DNA from: a virus
Direction: 5' to 3' (one strand)
DNA length: 28,357 nt
Virus record (IMG/VR): IMGVR_UViG_3300036800_000026
Span: 1 to 28,357 of that record
Program-made: the position numbers and the translations under genes
Part shown: positions 14,694 to 28,357 of the stretch, piece after piece
Numbering within the stretch: the stretch's first letter is position 1
How the letters are laid out: the number at the start of each line of letters is the position of its first letter
Notes under the pieces: model-generated
What the model was told of the DNA's origin: nothing
Seen by the model: only the letters and a program-made list of their open reading frames with translations
Database searches by the model: none

Positions 14694-16829
14694 GTGGCTT
14701 TCTTCTCCATCCTCCAATACGTGGGTGACGGGACGACGACTAACTTCGCCGTCACGTTCCCCTACATCTCTGAGAGCGATGTGTCGTTCCTGGTCAACGG
14801 CGCGACGGTGTCTTACTCGTGGCTAAACACCACGACTATCACCGCCGCCGTTGCACCGGCGAACGCTGCTGTCGTCCAGATCAAGCGCAACACGTCGAAG
14901 TCGCTCCTCGTCAACTATCAGAACGGCTCTACCCTCGGGCAGGACGCGCTGAACCTGTCTGACACGCAGCTTCTCTACATCGCGCAAGAGGCGTTCGACG
15001 CGTCGTCCAGCGCGCCGATCCTGAACGCGTCTAACCAGTACGACGCTCTCACCCACAAGATCATCAACGTCGCCGATCCTACCAACGCGCAGGACGCGGC
15101 CACGAAGCATTACGTGGACAACGGCGCGACATCTCAGGTCGCACTAGCAACCGCCCAGGCCACCAACGCGGCCATCAGCGCGAGCGGAGCGGCCAATAGC
15201 GCAACGAACGCGTCCACTAGCGCAACCAATGCGGCGGCTAGCGCCACTGCAGCGGCCGGTAGTGCAGCTACGGCGTCCACCGAAGCAACCGCTGCATCCA
15301 CTTCAGCCACCAACGCGGCCAACAGCGCGACGGCTGCGGCCTCTGCTGCAGCTACCGTAGTCGCAACGTCGACCTCGCCAGTAGCCAACGGCACCGGCTC
15401 GAAGACCTTAGCGATCCAGGCCGGCAAGCAGTTCGCCGTGAACCAGTTCATCCAGATCGCCTCGGCCGGCACGGCCACGGCGTGGATGTGGGGTCAGGTA
15501 ACGTCCTACAGCGGCACATCGCTTGTTGTGAACGTAACCGTCGCAGGCGCAGACACCGGCACGCGTTCCGATTGGAACGTCACCATGTCGGGCGCACAAG
15601 GTGTTCCAGGTCCGACTGGTGCAACTGGCCCGACCGGCGCAACTGGTCCTGCTGGTGCAACCGGCCCGCAAGGTTCGACTGGTGCAACTGGTCCGACTGG
15701 TGCAACTGGTCCGACTGGCGCTACTGGTCCTATCGGTCCTGCACCGACTGTCACCTGCACCGCGAGCAACAGCTACAGCATCGATACCACGGCTAAGACC
15801 TTCACCGTGCCTACGGGCATGGGGATCACGGTCGGCTCGAAGCTGACGATTGCTTCACAAGCTGCGCCCGCTGCGAACTACATGGCGGCAACCGTCACGT
15901 CGTACAGCGGCTCGCTGCTCACCGTCAGCATTGATCTTGCTGTAGGCACTGGCGCGCACACCGATTGGAACATCTCAGTCGGCGGCACGCAAGGCCCCGC
16001 TGGTGCAACTGGCCCGACCGGCGCAACTGGTCCGACTGGTGCTACTGGCGCAACCGGCGCTCAAGGTCCGAAAGGCGATACGGGAGCGACTGGTCCTGCT
16101 GGTGCAACCGGCGCGACTGGCGCAACCGGCGCAACTGGTCCTGCTGGTCCTACCGGCGCAACCGGCGCGACTGGTGCTAACGGCGGACTAGCCGGCACGT
16201 CTGTAACCGACACGTCCGCAACGTCGGTCAACCTCGGCTCCATCAACTCCGCAGCCAACACCAACATGACCGTGTCTGCATCTATGGGTTACACCGTAGG
16301 CGCACAGGTGACGGTCACTGAAACTAGCAACAGCGCGAACTGGTTCGCCGGATACGTCTCGGCGTACAGCGGCACCACGCTCAGCGTTTGGGTTGAGCAG
16401 TTTGGTGGCAGCGGCACGCACACCGACTGGACTATCGTGGCCTTCAACGGCATCACGCGGTCGGTCGACTTCACTGCAGGCGGCTTAGCGGTAAGCTTCC
16501 AGACGCTTGTTGCGCATATCCCCGCGCCGGCTCCTGGCATCTATCTGGTCGAAGGCTTCGTGACCCTAAAGGACTCTGCCGTCACTGCTGGTCAGTACGA
16601 AGTGTTCCTCGCGGATGCAAGCGGCTTCAACTACGCCATCGGCTACGCGAACTGCCCGTCCGTCGCGAACAACCTCGTGACAGTATCCCTGCATGCGATT
16701 GTGCATGTCAGCGCCGGCATCGGCGACTTCCAGCTCATCGTCTCCGCTCCTGACGCCACTAGCAAGGTGATCTGGGACAACGAGGGCGGTGATCAGAACA
16801 CCATCCTATCAGCGGTCAGACTCGTATGA
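14694..16829 (+). CDS. Tail fibre protein: T7-type N-terminus with collagen-like linkers
   Basis: This encodes 711 residues from GTG 14694. The N-terminal ~150 residues ([27 protein letters not shown]..., AEEAFDASS-like helix, then [22 protein letters not shown]) match the virion-attachment domain of T7 gp17-type fibres. An Ala/Ser/Thr-rich coiled-coil-like stretch follows (about 150-225). Next come three related globular repeats ending [18 protein letters not shown] and [10 protein letters not shown], separated by two Gly-X-Y blocks. The C-terminal ~110 residues resemble a small beta domain ([22 protein letters not shown]) and would be the receptor-binding tip. The stop overlaps the holin start (ATGA). 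The ribosome site is weak. Confidence 0.9.
15591..15744 (+). repeat. Collagen-like Gly-X-Y coding repeat, block 1
   Basis: Tandem nine-base-scale units of the type ggtgcaactggtccgact encode GATGPT-like triplets, starting at GAQGVPGP and ending GPIGPAP. The block links fibre repeat domain 1 to domain 2. Near-identical DNA units make it prone to length change. Confidence 0.85.
15984..16188 (+). repeat. Collagen-like Gly-X-Y coding repeat, block 2
   Basis: This second, longer block of Gly-X-Y units includes [13 protein letters not shown] and runs of GAT triplets. It links fibre repeat domain 2 to domain 3. It shares DNA units with block 1, so recombination between the two blocks could delete domain 2. 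Confidence 0.85.
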
Positions 16830-17975: not shown

Positions 17976-18473
17976 ATGACACCTACCTTCCTCGCTGCCG
18001 TAGCCATCGTGCTGCGGCACGAGGGAGGCTATGTGAACGATCCTAAAGACCCTGGTGGCGAGACGAACTTCGGCATCAGCAAGCGTTCATACCCCTCCCT
18101 CGACATCAAGAATCTAACGGCCGATCAGGCCAAAGAGATTTACTTCCGCGACTTCTGGATCAAGAACAACATCAATCTTCTGCCCGTCACCATCGCGCCG
18201 AAGGTTCTCGATACGGTCGTCCTCGCCGGTCCTGAGTGGGGCGCTCGTCTCCTCCAGCTTGCTCTTGTCGGCCTCGGCCAGCGTCTAACCATCGACTGCA
18301 AGCTCGGCGTAATGACCGCCGCTGCGTGTCAGGCTGTCGATCCAGGCGCGCTCCTTTCCCTCTACTGCAACATGCTCGACGCGCACTACCGGCACATCGC
18401 CGACTCTCATCCTGACCTCGTGAAGTTCCTTCGCGGTTGGGAAGCGCGTGCGAAAGAGACAGACCTCGTTTGA
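17976..18473 (+). CDS. Endolysin, N-acetylmuramidase of the GH108 family
   Basis: This encodes 165 residues. The N-terminal motif LRHEGGYVNDPKDPGGETNFGIS carries the catalytic Glu (residue 16) in the E-G-G-Y context of glycoside hydrolase 108. A C-terminal region (NMLDAHYRHIADSHPDLVKFLRGWEARA) corresponds to the peptidoglycan-binding part of the family. It would cut the glycan chain of the cell wall at lysis. Residues 4-13 (TFLAAVAIVL) are mildly hydrophobic but belong to the folded N-terminal helix, so export probably depends on the holin. T7 uses an amidase encoded elsewhere, so this cassette differs. The stop overlaps the start of the lipase-like gene. Confidence 0.92.
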   Translation: MTPTFLAAVAIVLRHEGGYVNDPKDPGGETNFGISKRSYPSLDIKNLTADQAKEIYFRDFWIKNNINLLPVTIAPKVLDTVVLAGPEWGARLLQLALVGLGQRLTIDCKLGVMTAAACQAVDPGALLSLYCNMLDAHYRHIADSHPDLVKFLRGWEARAKETDLV

Positions 18474-19069
18474 TCCTCCCGACCGATACGGCCCGCGCGG
18501 CGTTAGCTGCTGCGGCCTACGACGCTTCGCGCGAGCCCACCTGGGTAACGTGCAAGAACACGCGCGTCTTCCTCGACAAAGGTGAGACGCATCCGATCAT
18601 CACCTTCGAGGGCACACGCCCGACGCTGCTATCCGACTGGATGGTGGACCTCGATCAACTCCCTTTCACCATCGACACCGTCCTGAACTCGCTGCCAGCC
18701 GGCTTCACTGCCGCCGTGCTGTCCGTGATCTTCCAGATCATGCACGACTTCCACGGCACTCCGGTTGGCTTCAACGGACACTCAATGGGCGCTGCAGAGG
18801 CCCTGCTTGCTGCCGCTCTGTGGGTTCGTGCGGGGCTCTTACTGTCCCGCGTAACGGCCTTCGAGCCGCCTCGGGTTGGCAAGCTCGGTGGTCTCCTAAC
18901 CAACGAAGACGTTCTGATCACCCACTGCGGGACCGATCCAGTGCCGGCAGTGCCATCATGGAAGGATCACCCGTACGCGGTCGATGCGCTGCCTAACCTG
19001 GGCAACTGGTCTCCCATCGCGTGCCATGAGATGGCGAACGTGCAGCAGGCGCTCAAGGCAGCAGCGTGA
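18470..19069 (+). CDS. Class-3 lipase-like alpha/beta hydrolase in the lysis cassette
   Basis: This encodes 199 residues from TTG 18470, which overlaps the endolysin stop (TTGA). The family marks of class-3 lipases are present in order: ITFEGTRPTLLSDWMVDLD (oxyanion strand and D-W-x-x-D, about 44-62), nucleophile elbow GHSMG (Ser 105), FEPPRVG (131-137), THCGTDPVPAVP (Asp 156) and a late His (ACHEM, His 186). It therefore looks catalytically complete. No signal peptide is obvious. Placed after the endolysin and before the large terminase, where T7 has the spanin gene, it probably acts on membrane lipid at lysis. An upstream TTG at 18437 is possible but would run well inside the endolysin gene. 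Confidence 0.82.
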   Translation: MILPTDTARAALAAAAYDASREPTWVTCKNTRVFLDKGETHPIITFEGTRPTLLSDWMVDLDQLPFTIDTVLNSLPAGFTAAVLSVIFQIMHDFHGTPVGFNGHSMGAAEALLAAALWVRAGLLLSRVTAFEPPRVGKLGGLLTNEDVLITHCGTDPVPAVPSWKDHPYAVDALPNLGNWSPIACHEMANVQQALKAAA

Positions 19070-25371: not shown

Positions 25372-25483
25372 TGCGAATGGATGATATGAACGGCGGTCGT
25401 TTGTTTTCCCTGCAACTTTGGAGATGGTCCCTGCTGTTGGCGCTCGACCCGCCAACACCACATGATCAGGAGCGAGAAGAAGC

Positions 25484-25822
25484 ATGTCACCAGCTAGGAG
25501 GCCAGTTGGCCCAGGAGAGTTAATTCTCCGCATCACCACTCACGCACTACCTGACCTGTCGCTAGCAGAGCTTAAAGTTCTGGCATGCGTGCAAGCGCAC
25601 GAAGGCGATGAAGACCCTGCACTGACGCAGAGCCGTATCGTTGAGTTGACTGGAGTGCCCAAGCAGACAGTAGGTGCTGCCCTCGACTATCTAGGAAGCG
25701 AGGGGCTTCACGAAGCGAAGCGGGAGAAGCCGCCCCTTCACCTACTGCGCCGCACCAATCGGGACAGTCGGCGCTCGAACGTGATCGAACTGACGCCGAA
25801 AGGGCGCAGCCTCTTTTCCTGA
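25484..25822 (+). CDS. Winged-helix (MarR-like) regulator next to the integrase
   Basis: This encodes 112 residues, ATG 25484, AGGAG upstream. It has LSLAELKVLACVQAHEGDEDPALTQSRIVELTGVPKQTVGAALDYLGSEGLHEAKRE: a first helix, then a clear helix-turn-helix (TQSRIVELTGVPKQTVGAALDYLGSEGL, about 48-75). A short wing and an ELTPKGRSLF end follow, as in MarR proteins. It precedes the integrase by 13 bases, so both are probably made from the promoter at 25236. It may act as repressor, excisionase-like factor or integrase regulator. It is distinct in sequence from the winged-helix protein at 24779. Confidence 0.78.
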   Translation: MSPARRPVGPGELILRITTHALPDLSLAELKVLACVQAHEGDEDPALTQSRIVELTGVPKQTVGAALDYLGSEGLHEAKREKPPLHLLRRTNRDSRRSNVIELTPKGRSLFS

Positions 25823-25835
25823 TAGGAGCAACGCA

Positions 25836-26951
25836 TTGAGCGTCACCCAACGCGGTCCCGCTTGGCAAGTCTATGTCAAGCGAGGCACACAACGTTTCCG
25901 CATCGCGGCTCCCACCGAGGAACAAGGTAAGCGGTGGGAGCAAGAGATAGTCGACTGCCTTGACGCAGGCAAGCCGGTAGACCTCGACGACATTAAGAGC
26001 ATCGGCAAGGCCGGCAGCGGTAAGACGCTTAAGGACGCGTTTGACATCGTGCAGACACGACGCTGGAAGGGCACGAAGGCAGAGAAGTCCCGATGGCTAA
26101 ACGCCCTCGCGGTCATGGAAGTCCTAGGCCAGCACACCAGTGTGGACGCAATCACCGACGAAGACGTGGACACGATGATGAAGGCGTTCGAGGACGCCGG
26201 TAACTCTGACGCCACGATCAACCGCAAAATCTCCGCGCTGTCACTCGCAGTGAAGCTCGCTATCAAGCGCGGCTGGCGTACTAAGGCGCTCGATCTAGAA
26301 CGGCGCAAGGAATACAAGGGGCGCATCCGTTACCTCGTAGGCGAGGAAGAAAACACACTGCTGACCGCAACGCGCCACTTCGGCTACACCGATCAGGCTG
26401 ACCTGTGGGTGTTCCTTATCGACACTGGCTGTCGCATCAGCGAGGCGCTGCGCGTCAACCCCGCGAAGGACTGCACGGCCACGCATGTGTCGTTCTGGAA
26501 GACGAAGAACGACGAGGCGCGCACGATCCCGCTCACTGAGCGATGCAAAGAGATTGTCCATCGACGCCGCAACCTGCCGCTACTGTTCCCGTTCGACTAC
26601 TGGACCGCAGACCGCGCCTGGGACCGCGTACGCTCGCACTTGAAGCTGCTGCAGGATCGCGAATGGGTCATCCACATGCTGCGCCATACCTGCGCGTCAC
26701 GCCTCGTGCAGCGTGGCATCCCGATCCTCGTGGTGAAGGAGTGGATGGGACACAAGAGCATCGTCACTACGATGCGCTACGCTCATCTTGCCCCTTCCAA
26801 TCTCGACGCTGCTGTGGCAGTTCTCAACCCGGCCAGCCCGCTTGGCGGAACGGTAGACGCATGGGGCTTAAAACCCCAAGGCTCAAAAGGCCGTGCCGGT
26901 TCAAGTCCGGCAGCGGGCACCAACGTCATCAACCTCAAGGAGAGTGCGTAG
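25836..26951 (+). CDS. int: Phage tyrosine-family integrase
   Basis: This encodes 371 residues from TTG 25836 with an ideal AGGAG site seven bases away. It integrates and, with help, excises the prophage by strand exchange at the tRNA-Leu site. The catalytic set is complete: Arg 200 (DTGCRISEAL), Lys 222 or 224 (SFWKTK), His 280 and Arg 283 (HMLRHTCASRL), His 306 (MGHKS) and Tyr 315 (TTMRYAHLAP). An N-terminal core-binding (SAM-like) domain spans about 65-155. The family normally ends near residue 332 (DAAVAVLN). Here about 38 extra residues are read through a tRNA gene (residues 334-362) to a stop that overlaps the lipoprotein start. The rare TTG start suggests low expression. Confidence 0.95.
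   Translation: MSVTQRGPAWQVYVKRGTQRFRIAAPTEEQGKRWEQEIVDCLDAGKPVDLDDIKSIGKAGSGKTLKDAFDIVQTRRWKGTKAEKSRWLNALAVMEVLGQHTSVDAITDEDVDTMMKAFEDAGNSDATINRKISALSLAVKLAIKRGWRTKALDLERRKEYKGRIRYLVGEEENTLLTATRHFGYTDQADLWVFLIDTGCRISEALRVNPAKDCTATHVSFWKTKNDEARTIPLTERCKEIVHRRRNLPLLFPFDYWTADRAWDRVRSHLKLLQDREWVIHMLRHTCASRLVQRGIPILVVKEWMGHKSIVTTMRYAHLAPSNLDAAVAVLNPASPLGGTVDAWGLKPQGSKGRAGSSPAAGTNVINLKESA
26836..26922 (+). tRNA. tRNA-Leu (anticodon UAA), complete, inside the integrase reading frame
   Basis: These 87 bases fold as a full leucine tRNA. The acceptor is GCCCGCT with AGCGGGC, followed by ACCA. The D arm is GGCGGAACGGTAGACGC, the anticodon stem TGGGG/CCCCA with loop CTTAAAA (anticodon TAA). A long variable arm (GGCTCAAAAGGCC) follows, and a T arm GCCGG-TTCAAGT-CCGGC. 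CCA is encoded. It shares its last 30 bases with the attR fragment at 27327-27356, but the anticodon stem and variable arm differ, so it is a different Leu(UAA) gene and is probably phage-borne. Confidence 0.9.
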
Positions 26952-27193
26952 TGGAACTGTCACCGAAGATGAAGAAGCTCGACGCGCAGTTGGTCTCACC
27001 GCTGCTCGTGCCTGTCGCCATTATCGTGATGCTGCTCGCGCTTGCCGGCTGCAATAGCGTGGTGGTCATGCACGACCCGAAGACCGGAGCGACCGCGCAG
27101 TGTCAGCCCGACAGCGGCAACCTGTTCGCTCAGCATGCGGCCGAGACGTGCGCTGAAGGCTACGAGAAGCTCGGCTGGCAGCGCGTTAACTGA
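26951..27193 (+). CDS. Small lipoprotein between integrase and attR
   Basis: This encodes 80 residues from GTG 26951, whose first base is the last of the integrase stop (TAGTG), with AAGGAG eight bases upstream. A basic start, a hydrophobic helix (LLVPVAIIVMLLALAGC) and the lipobox LAGC (Cys at about 34) mark a lipoprotein. The mature part is about 47 residues (NSVVVMHDPKTGATAQCQPDSG, then AAETCAEGYEKLGWQRVN) with two more Cys. It could be a lysogenic-conversion or superinfection-exclusion lipoprotein, or less likely an outer-membrane spanin. Being expressed with the integrase favours a prophage-state role. ATG 26969 would shorten the leader but has no ribosome site. Confidence 0.8.
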   Translation: MELSPKMKKLDAQLVSPLLVPVAIIVMLLALAGCNSVVVMHDPKTGATAQCQPDSGNLFAQHAAETCAEGYEKLGWQRVN

Positions 27194-27197
27194 GCGC

Positions 27198-27233
27198 GTG
27201 GCCTTGGGTGTGGCCTGCTTGTGGCCCATGTGG
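27198..27233. repeat. Phased GTGG(CC) repeats beside attR
   Basis: GTGG begins at 27198, 27210, 27221 and 27230, three of them as GTGGCC, at steps of 12, 11 and 9 bases. They lie about 70-100 bases from the attR core on the phage side, where integrase arm-type or excisionase sites are expected. The 9-mer GTGGCCCAT at 27221-27229 is the reverse complement of ATGGGCCAC at 21259 and 21499. Confidence 0.55.
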
Positions 27234-27299
27234 TCCGTGTCAGGCAGCACCCTGCATTAAGTCGTTGATACATCGGCACAACCGCGAACTACCAGCCGT

Positions 27300-27356
27300 C
27301 TTAAAATCCGTAGTCGCGCAAGCGATGTGCCGGTTCAAGTCCGGCAGCGGGCACCA
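27300..27356 (+). other. attR: 3' fragment of the host tRNA-Leu(UAA) gene
   Basis: From CTTAAAA (anticodon loop) to the terminal ACCA the sequence is the 3' half of a leucine tRNA: variable arm around GTCGCGCAAGCGAT, T arm GCCGG-TTCAAGT-CCGGC and acceptor strand AGCGGGC. The bases before it cannot form the 5' half: no matching acceptor strand is upstream, and the 5' anticodon stem does not pair. This is the footprint left by integration into a tRNA 3' end; the complete host gene should lie at attL, left of the window. Sequence to the right is host. Confidence 0.85.
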
Positions 27357-27495
27357 ATCATCTTTTTAGAAAGTGAACGCTTGCCTCTTCGAGCGCCCAC
27401 GCGGCGCGCCTAGGCCGAAGAGACGGTTTACCAGCAAACGAGCGGGCGATTTGTAGCGAATGCGATTAACCTAACCCAGCCTAAACATAGGATTC
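27357..27495. other. Host intergenic stretch after attR
   Basis: No gene is seen. CTCTTCG (27385-27391) pairs with CGAAGAG (27416-27422), enclosing a GC-rich part that can pair further. No T-tract follows the stem, but a CTTTTT tract stands right after the tRNA end (27361-27367) and could end the tRNA transcript. Confidence 0.5.
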
Positions 27496-27531
27496 TTGAC
27501 ATTTTAATGATACGGGTTGATACGTATCGAT
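27496..27531 (+). promoter_or_regulatory. Promoter and operator of the HTH gene
   Basis: A consensus -35 TTGACA stands at 27496-27501; GATACG or nearby TACGTA would be the -10 at 17-19 bases. TGATACG occurs at 27508-27514 and 27518-27524 (step 10), and GATACGTATC is a perfect palindrome at 27519-27528, touching the start codon. No Shine-Dalgarno is present, so a leaderless or near-leaderless mRNA is likely. The layout suggests self-regulation by the HTH protein. Confidence 0.6.
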
Positions 27532-27732
27532 ATGGTCAAAGCCCGTACTTACACCCTAACTGAAGCAGCCGAGTGTGTCGGCGTGTCGGGAATTACTTTG
27601 AAGCGGTGGTTATTATCCGGCAAAGTGCCTGAAGTTTCTCGCGACCGGAATAATTGGCGCGTATTTACTGATAGAGATATCGGCCGGATTAAGAGGTACG
27701 CATCAGTGCGGCGGGAACCGCAGCGCAAATGA
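27532..27732 (+). CDS. Small MerR/excisionase-type HTH protein
   Basis: This encodes 66 residues from ATG 27532 (TTG 27517 is a longer option within the operator). The sequence YTLTEAAECVGVSGITLKRWLLSGKVPEVSRDRNNWRVFTDRDIGRIKRY is a classic MerR-type winged HTH: T-x-x-E-A-A-x-x-x-G-V-S-x-x-T-L-x-R-W, then a wing with N-x-W-R-V-F-T-x-x-D. It has only the DNA-binding domain, with no effector part. It overlaps the methyltransferase gene by four bases (ATGA), so it is probably the control protein of that cassette, comparable in role to C proteins of restriction-modification systems. Base use is lower in GC than in the phage genes. Confidence 0.82.
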   Translation: MVKARTYTLTEAAECVGVSGITLKRWLLSGKVPEVSRDRNNWRVFTDRDIGRIKRYASVRREPQRK

Positions 27733-28357
27733 TTTCCAAAAAGAAACTCCCGGAACTAAGGCGATACATTCAGGCGGAAGAAAATCTTCCCATCACCGCT
27801 AGGATCGGGCTCGCCACGCTTGTCGTACCGGAAGGCAATGACAAGCGTCCGTGCTACAGGTGGTTCAAATACAAAGAGGCCTTTTCTTCAAAACTTCTCG
27901 GCCAATTTCTTGGCAAGGTAAGCTCGTCTTCTCCCATTCGCCTCCTCGATCCCTATTGTGGCGTCGGGACCGGCCTGTTGTCGGCCCAGCTCGCGCACAG
28001 AGCGGTTAATGCGATAGGGATAGAGTGCAATCCGTTTTCTGTTTTTGTCGCGCGAACAAAGCTGGCGTGGCACCAAATAGATGCCGAGAAATTTCGTGTG
28101 TTGGCTTCAAAGCTCGAACACGTGCAACCAACCCGGCCAGTATCATTGCCAGGACTGTCGAGCATCGCAACGGGGCGTTGCATAAGTCGGCACATGGCTA
28201 CTCAAGTAATCGCAATGCGTAATGCGATCGAAGAGATGGCACTGGGCAAAGAACGCGATGCACTTTTGCTGGGACTTGCTTCGTCTATTGAGCCCATCAG
28301 CCGCATACGGCGTGATGGGCGTGCGCTGCGGATCATCGATAAGTCCCGCACCATTTT
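27729..28357 (+). CDS. DNA methyltransferase, N-terminal part (runs off the window)
   Basis: The frame is open from ATG 27729 to the edge, giving 209 residues. Residues near 76-105 read RLLDPYCGVGTGLLSAQLA and then NAIGIECNPFSVFVARTK. This is SAM-binding motif I (D-P-x-C-G-x-G-T) followed by the acidic strand end (E-C-N-P), typical of DNA N6-adenine or N4-cytosine methyltransferases. The catalytic D/N/S-P-P-Y motif should lie in the missing part. Before motif I there is CYRWFKYKEAFSSKLL, as in several such enzymes. Coupled to the HTH gene and next to a tRNA integration site, it suggests a restriction-modification or defence island. Confidence 0.82.
   Translation, partial: MISKKKLPELRRYIQAEENLPITARIGLATLVVPEGNDKRPCYRWFKYKEAFSSKLLGQFLGKVSSSSPIRLLDPYCGVGTGLLSAQLAHRAVNAIGIECNPFSVFVARTKLAWHQIDAEKFRVLASKLEHVQPTRPVSLPGLSSIATGRCISRHMATQVIAMRNAIEEMALGKERDALLLGLASSIEPISRIRRDGRALRIIDKSRTI

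What the first reader, a model, noticed from the sequence alone, without database searches (positions are those of the whole stretch)
26836..26922. Complete tRNA-Leu(UAA) gene nested in the coding sequence of the phage integrase
A full cloverleaf with an encoded CCA lies wholly inside the integrase frame, on the same strand, and the frame stays open through it to a stop coupled to the next gene. The integrase family normally ends just before this point. One stretch of DNA thus appears to serve as a tRNA gene and as the C-terminal ~30 codons of integrase. Processing of the tRNA from the mRNA would remove the integrase stop codon and cut the lipoprotein message, which could couple tRNA maturation to integrase level. 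A phage copy of the very isoacceptor used as attB could also replace host tRNA-Leu lost to anticodon nucleases.
Basis: partly seen in the sequence, partly recalled or inferred. Interest (0 to 1): 0.8.

Follow-up and report, generated by a model that had tools for sequence, protein, structure and literature searches.

The report
Replacement tRNA fused into phage integrase
A bacterial virus that inserts itself into the middle of its host's leucine-tRNA gene carries its own spare copy of that tRNA, and in this virus the spare has run into the end of the integrase gene; carrying a spare is a known strategy, and the fusion is an unusual but probably accidental twist.

Summary
A complete tRNA-Leu(UAA) (26836-26922; Rfam 60.3 bits) lies in frame inside an integrase ORF (25836-26951). 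The phage is a temperate T7-like prophage. A second feature explains it: 27300-27356 is the 3' half, from anticodon loop to CCA, of a different tRNA-Leu(UAA) of alphaproteobacterial type. That is attR; host DNA follows.

The best reading is tRNA-dependent lysogeny. Integration breaks the host tRNA-Leu(UAA) in its anticodon loop and the phage brings a replacement of the same isoacceptor.

In related T7-like phages an isolated anticodon-loop core, matching the phage tRNA's own anticodon, follows the tRNA in 21 of 26 same-strand cases (background about 1%). Three integrated relatives show the host tRNA split, no tRNA at attL, and the element's own tRNA intact; in two, no other intact copy was found in the sequence searched.

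The nesting itself looks incidental. Relatives stop just before the tRNA, about half of tRNA-Leu frames are open by chance, and the tail is predicted disordered. The strategy is published, including for T7-like Rhizobium phages (PMC8631192, PMC10865867). attL of this prophage lies outside the window, so non-reconstruction here is inferred. Regulation by tRNA processing is untested.

The parts
25484..25822 (+). MarR-like regulator upstream of int
   Evidence: weak PF12802 match, 24.7 bits, below cutoff; a MarR-like gene sits at this place in LUZ100 and HTVC019P
25836..26951 (+). tyrosine integrase ORF, 371 aa, TTG start; conserved fold ends at about residue 331
   Evidence: PF00589 and phrog_1; alignments; AlphaFold2 model
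26836..26922 (+). complete phage tRNA-Leu(UAA), read in frame as integrase codons 334-362
   Evidence: ARAGORN, Rfam RF00005 60.3 bits
26951..27193 (+). small lipoprotein-like ORF, GTG start overlapping the int stop by one base
   Evidence: ORF and lipobox-like LAGC; no family match and no phage match
27258..27269 (+). TAAGTCGTTGAT, candidate integrase-binding site 42 nt 5' of the att core
   Evidence: motif shared with several relatives near their att cores; only copy in the window; about 8 times more frequent just 3' of int than elsewhere
27300..27356 (+). attR: 3' half of the host-type tRNA-Leu(UAA), anticodon loop to CCA
   Evidence: repeat; complete tRNAs of this form in Alphaproteobacteria
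27357..28357 (.). presumed host flank: MerR-like ORF 27517-27732 and an incomplete methyltransferase-like ORF from about 27717
   Evidence: G+C falls from about 0.61 to 0.53; plasmid rather than tailed-phage relatives

Best explanation
The window is the int-attR end of a temperate T7-like prophage of an alphaproteobacterium. Its integrase recombines a short phage core (CTTAAAA plus a few bases) with the anticodon loop of the host tRNA-Leu(UAA), splitting that gene: the 3' half is seen at 27300-27356 and the 5' half should lie at attL, outside the window. Because a short core cannot rebuild the host tRNA, the phage carries its own complete tRNA-Leu(UAA) beside int, which keeps the lysogen able to read UUA codons (tRNA-dependent lysogeny). 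In this phage the usual int stop and spacer before the tRNA are missing, so the integrase frame reads through the tRNA to a stop about 26 nt past it. This is most likely a neutral fusion adding a disordered tail. Shown: the tRNA, its nesting, the attR half of a different tRNA of the same isoacceptor, and the complete anatomy in three relatives. Inferred: attL in this prophage, expression of the tRNA, and dependence of the lysogen on it.
For: (1) The tRNA is intact by two methods. (2) attR at 27300-27356 is the 3' half of another tRNA-Leu(UAA), typical of Alphaproteobacteria. (3) Relatives of int are T7-like phages, several with a tRNA-Leu beside int. (4) An isolated anticodon-loop core matching the phage tRNA's own isoacceptor lies within 100 nt 3' of it in 17/20 UAA, 2/3 CAA and 2/3 UAG same-strand cases, with none of the wrong type; background 0.7-1.1% per 100 nt. 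Others have it elsewhere 3' of int, including LUZ100. (5) Three integrated relatives have the host 5' half at attL and the 3' half at attR with a shared core of about 10-13 bp; joining the two host halves gives a tRNA-Leu of the same anticodon as the element's tRNA, while attL gives none: Shinella sp. PSBB067, a decayed element keeping a T7-type RNA polymerase; genome G666, about 42.7 kb; record G681. In Shinella and G666 the element's tRNA is the only intact copy found by pattern. (6) Full tRNA-Leu and long half-tRNA attP rarely co-occur in relatives, except at integrated ends. (7) Nesting: about half of tRNA-Leu frames are open by chance; tail predicted disordered.
Against: attL is not in the window, so a long restoring core in this phage cannot be excluded; the tRNA would then be an extra copy. 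The core lies 464 nt from the tRNA start here, against about 86-105 nt in most relatives. The 1-nt TAGTG overlap with the next ORF is typical of coupled genes and could mean the extended frame is translated for a purpose. No close relative of this int was found, so conservation of the nesting itself could not be tested among near relatives.
Confidence: 0.82

Rival explanations
1. The tRNA is a passenger or relic of an earlier integration, picked up by imprecise excision, while the real attP restores the host tRNA in the canonical way.
For: Proposed for LUZ100 and Pelagibacter phages (PMC10134795). The phage tRNA shares 31 nt at its 3' end with the attR half. attL is unseen.
Against: The core-isoacceptor match over UAA, CAA and UAG phages, the three integrated relatives whose attL holds no tRNA, and the intact stems of a tRNA different from the attR half argue for retention by need.
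Confidence: 0.1
2. The nesting is selected: excising the tRNA from the shared transcript destroys the int stop codon and lowers integrase once lysogeny is established.
For: Same strand, so co-transcription is expected; the TAGTG overlap; a second possible case in L229, where an int frame runs through tRNA-Asn.
Against: Relatives with the same neighbours keep a stop before the tRNA; open frames are common by chance. No expression data.
Confidence: 0.12
3. The tRNA serves lytic growth: it counters anticodon nucleases that cut tRNA-Leu(UAA), or it supplies UUA decoding.
For: A known role of other phage tRNAs, as discussed in PMC10865867 and PMC11476347.
Against: Only one tRNA is found in the window, and it is the isoacceptor of the att site; in relatives the isoacceptor switches together with the att core.
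Confidence: 0.08

Closest known systems
tRNA-dependent lysogeny of actinobacteriophages (Fionnbharth, LeBron, Gaia; PMC10865867)
   Same: tyrosine integrase, attB in a host tRNA, phage tRNA of the same isotype; short core in the relatives of this phage
   Different: different integrases and hosts; tRNA not described inside the int frame; requirement proven by mutants there, not here
Rhizobium vTRX32-1 and RHEph01-like Autographiviridae phages (PMC8631192)
   Same: T7-like temperate phages, related integrase, 12-bp core in tRNA-Leu, phage tRNA-Leu proposed to replace the host's
   Different: core CAGATTTAGGTT is of the UAG type; here UAA; no nesting reported in the passages read
Fonsibacter/Pelagibacter HTVC019P-type phages (PMC6811365)
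   Same: T7-like, integrate in tRNA-Leu, one reported with its own replacement tRNA-Leu
   Different: integration in the UAG isoacceptor; no nesting reported in the passages read
LUZ100 and related Pseudomonas T7-like phages (PMC10134795)
   Same: MarR-int module with tRNA-Leu(UAA); candidate CTTAAAA core about 160 nt after the matched part of int
   Different: tRNA on the opposite strand upstream of int; authors read it as an excision relic
archaeal suicidal integrases (SSV1 and pTN3 type, PMC8371274)
   Same: tRNA-derived sequence translated as part of the integrase
   Different: there the att site is inside int and integration splits the gene; here the att core is 349 nt past the int stop and int stays whole

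Membership tests
tRNA-dependent lysogeny | tyrosine family integrase | tested here: met
   PF00589, phrog_1
tRNA-dependent lysogeny | attB overlaps a host tRNA gene | tested here: met
   3' half of an alphaproteobacterial-type tRNA-Leu(UAA) at 27300-27356
tRNA-dependent lysogeny | common core too short to rebuild the tRNA at attL | tested here: inconclusive
   attL outside the window; met in three integrated relatives
[quoted passage not shown]
   intact tRNA-Leu(UAA) 26836-26922
tRNA-dependent lysogeny | phage tRNA required for lysogeny | not testable with these tools
   needs mutants
temperate T7-like (Autographiviridae) phages | T7-type terminase and head-tail connector | tested here: met
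   PF22530, PF12236
temperate T7-like (Autographiviridae) phages | single-subunit RNA polymerase next to the int/att module | not tested
   expected at the attL side, outside the window; present in the Shinella element and in phage relatives
archaeal suicidal integrase | att site inside int, gene split on integration | tested here: not met
   core at 27300, int ends at 26951 and is whole beside attR
canonical tRNA-gene integration | att core long enough to restore the tRNA | tested here: inconclusive
   attL not in the window

The most novel reading that the evidence does not exclude
The fusion is functional: one transcript must choose between becoming integrase mRNA and becoming the tRNA that makes lysogeny survivable. 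Cutting out the tRNA leaves a stop-less int message, so integrase falls once the replacement tRNA is supplied.
Probability: 0.12. Interest if true: 0.75.

Novelty: new variant of a known kind. Interest (0 to 1): 0.42.

Why it matters
It adds an in-frame fusion to a strategy in which a prophage becomes the sole source of an essential tRNA. The authors who defined the strategy asked how common it is outside Actinobacteria. The isoacceptor-to-core match across T7-like phages suggests it is common there, and it predicts att sites for phages such as LUZ100, for which no attachment site turned up in the paper searched here. If the fusion were regulatory, tRNA maturation would directly set integrase output, which could be tested directly.

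Tried and rejected
Pseudogene or att relic: rejected on the Rfam score and intact stems. The tRNA as the host's own attL copy: rejected, because the DNA on its 5' side is int and the host 3' half lies elsewhere (27300). Archaeal-type suicidal integrase: rejected, att core outside int. Close relatives of this int in genome contigs and viral contigs: none. Exact tRNA or repeat patterns in viral contigs: none. G237, an int relative with a tRNA-Ser upstream, was fetched but has a different layout and was set aside. attL of L040: not in its record. Promoter scan around the tRNA: no + strand site in 25400-27500, which is uninformative for this host. Candidate integrase-binding motif TAAG[TG]NNTTGAT: enriched but only modestly (5 in 68 kb near int, 6 in 620 kb elsewhere), so used as a hint only.

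Full report
What is there. ARAGORN and Rfam agree on a complete tRNA-Leu(UAA) at 26836-26922. It lies inside the ORF of a tyrosine integrase, 25836-26951, on the same strand. The integrase's nearest named relatives are T7-like temperate phages (BB8, LUZ100, Limnohabitans YIMV22061, Rhizobium and Pelagibacter phages), and the window carries a T7-type terminase and head-tail connector. The conserved integrase fold ends at about residue 331-333, just before the tRNA. An AlphaFold2 model places residues 343-371 below pLDDT 50, so the tRNA-encoded tail is predicted disordered.

The second tRNA piece. A 31-nt repeat is part of a 57-nt sequence, 27300-27356, that runs from the anticodon loop to CCA of a tRNA-Leu(UAA). 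It has a different anticodon stem and variable arm from the phage tRNA. A pattern search covering both forms found 35 loci, all in genomes labelled Alphaproteobacteria, its orders and families, or unclassified Proteobacteria/Pseudomonadota. Most are complete chromosomal tRNA-Leu(UAA) genes, several with the same TCCGTAG continuation. The base 5' of CTTAAAA departs from the host form (T instead of A), so host sequence begins at the loop. Past 27357 G+C drops and the incomplete methyltransferase-like gene there has plasmid rather than tailed-phage relatives. This is the expected right end (attR) of a prophage integrated in the anticodon loop.

Comparison with relatives. I collected 80 viral contigs by integrase and 80 by terminase and scanned them for tRNAs. 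Many carry a full tRNA-Leu on the int strand, mostly 7-55 nt after the int stop. In every one of these the integrase stops first, apart from one overlap of about 10 nt. Each of these full tRNAs tends to be followed by an isolated copy of the anticodon-loop sequence of its own isoacceptor: 17 of 20 UAA, 2 of 3 CAA and 2 of 3 UAG within 100 nt, with no mismatched type, against about 1% background. Others have the core elsewhere 3' of int, including LUZ100 at 161 nt after the matched part of int. A different set has a long half-tRNA and no full tRNA-Leu, the canonical arrangement.

Integrated cases. Three loci show both ends. In Shinella sp. PSBB067 the host tRNA-Leu(UAA) 5' half plus ACTTAAAATC is followed by a T7-type RNA polymerase gene; 8.8 kb on lies the 3' half, and the element's own tRNA-Leu(UAA) is about 150 bp inside that end. 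In genome G666 the two halves of a tRNA-Leu(UAG) lie about 42.7 kb apart and the element carries tRNA-Leu(UAG). In record G681 the halves of a tRNA-Leu(UAA) flank about 42 kb with a full tRNA-Leu(UAA) beside int. Joining the two host flanks gives a tRNA in each case; attL as it stands gives none. In Shinella and G666 pattern searches found no other intact copy of that isoacceptor. Limits: the Shinella search covered one 4.6-Mb replicon, and a tRNA with an unusual T-loop would be missed. Two more integrated ends, L040 and L186, show a full tRNA-Leu(CAA) with an attR half of another tRNA-Leu(CAA).

Mechanism. This is the anatomy of tRNA-dependent lysogeny, defined in mycobacteriophages (PMC10865867), where a short core leaves the host tRNA broken and the phage tRNA is required. 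The same idea was stated for T7-like Rhizobium phages with a 12-bp core (PMC8631192), for a Fonsibacter phage (PMC6811365), and for Lo5R7ANS-like prophages of Sinorhizobium (PMC12429752, PMC11476347). The window fits it in every feature that can be seen. The one structural feature that cannot be seen is attL.

The nesting. It is real but not conserved. About half of all tRNA-Leu(UAA) reading frames are free of stops, so once the int stop and spacer are lost the frame is likely to run through. Processing of the tRNA from a shared transcript would leave int without a stop codon; the lipoprotein ORF would keep its Shine-Dalgarno and start. Whether that matters is untested. L229 offers a possible second case, with an int frame running through tRNA-Asn to the contig end.

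Verdict. The finding is real, and most of its strangeness is explained by a known strategy. The new parts are the in-frame fusion, the UAA case with a displaced att site, and the isoacceptor-matched cores across T7-like phages.

Noticed in passing
L229:15240-15473: T7-like int frame runs through a complete tRNA-Asn(GTT) to the contig end; possible second int-tRNA fusion.
   Followed up: partly
L171:14800-23780 (Shinella sp. PSBB067): Decayed T7-like prophage keeps RNA polymerase, MarR, int and the only intact tRNA-Leu(UAA) found on the 4.6-Mb replicon; looks locked in by the tRNA.
   Followed up: yes
L004:3863 (LUZ100): CTTAAAA about 160 nt after the matched part of int, a candidate attP core for LUZ100, whose tRNA-Leu(UAA) lies just upstream of int.
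   Followed up: partly
L018:4391-4460: 5' half of a tRNA-Leu(UAG) downstream of int without a 3' half; origin unclear.
   Followed up: no
L016, L017: int followed by a half tRNA-Leu(UAG), a complete tRNA-His and, in L017, a complete tRNA-Leu(UAG) identical over 54 nt to the half.
   Followed up: no
L111; L116/L117; L092/L106: Alphaproteobacterial genomes with a full tRNA-Leu(UAA) plus a separate half copy, signs of other elements using this site.
   Followed up: no
window 15582-16228: Collagen-like [11 protein letters not shown] repeats in the tail-fibre-like ORF 14694-16829.
   Followed up: no
window 18437-19069: Lipase_3-like ORF between the muramidase-like ORF (17976-18473) and the terminase.
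   Followed up: no
window 27517-28355: MerR-like ORF and an incomplete methyltransferase-like ORF directly beyond attR on the presumed host side.
   Followed up: partly
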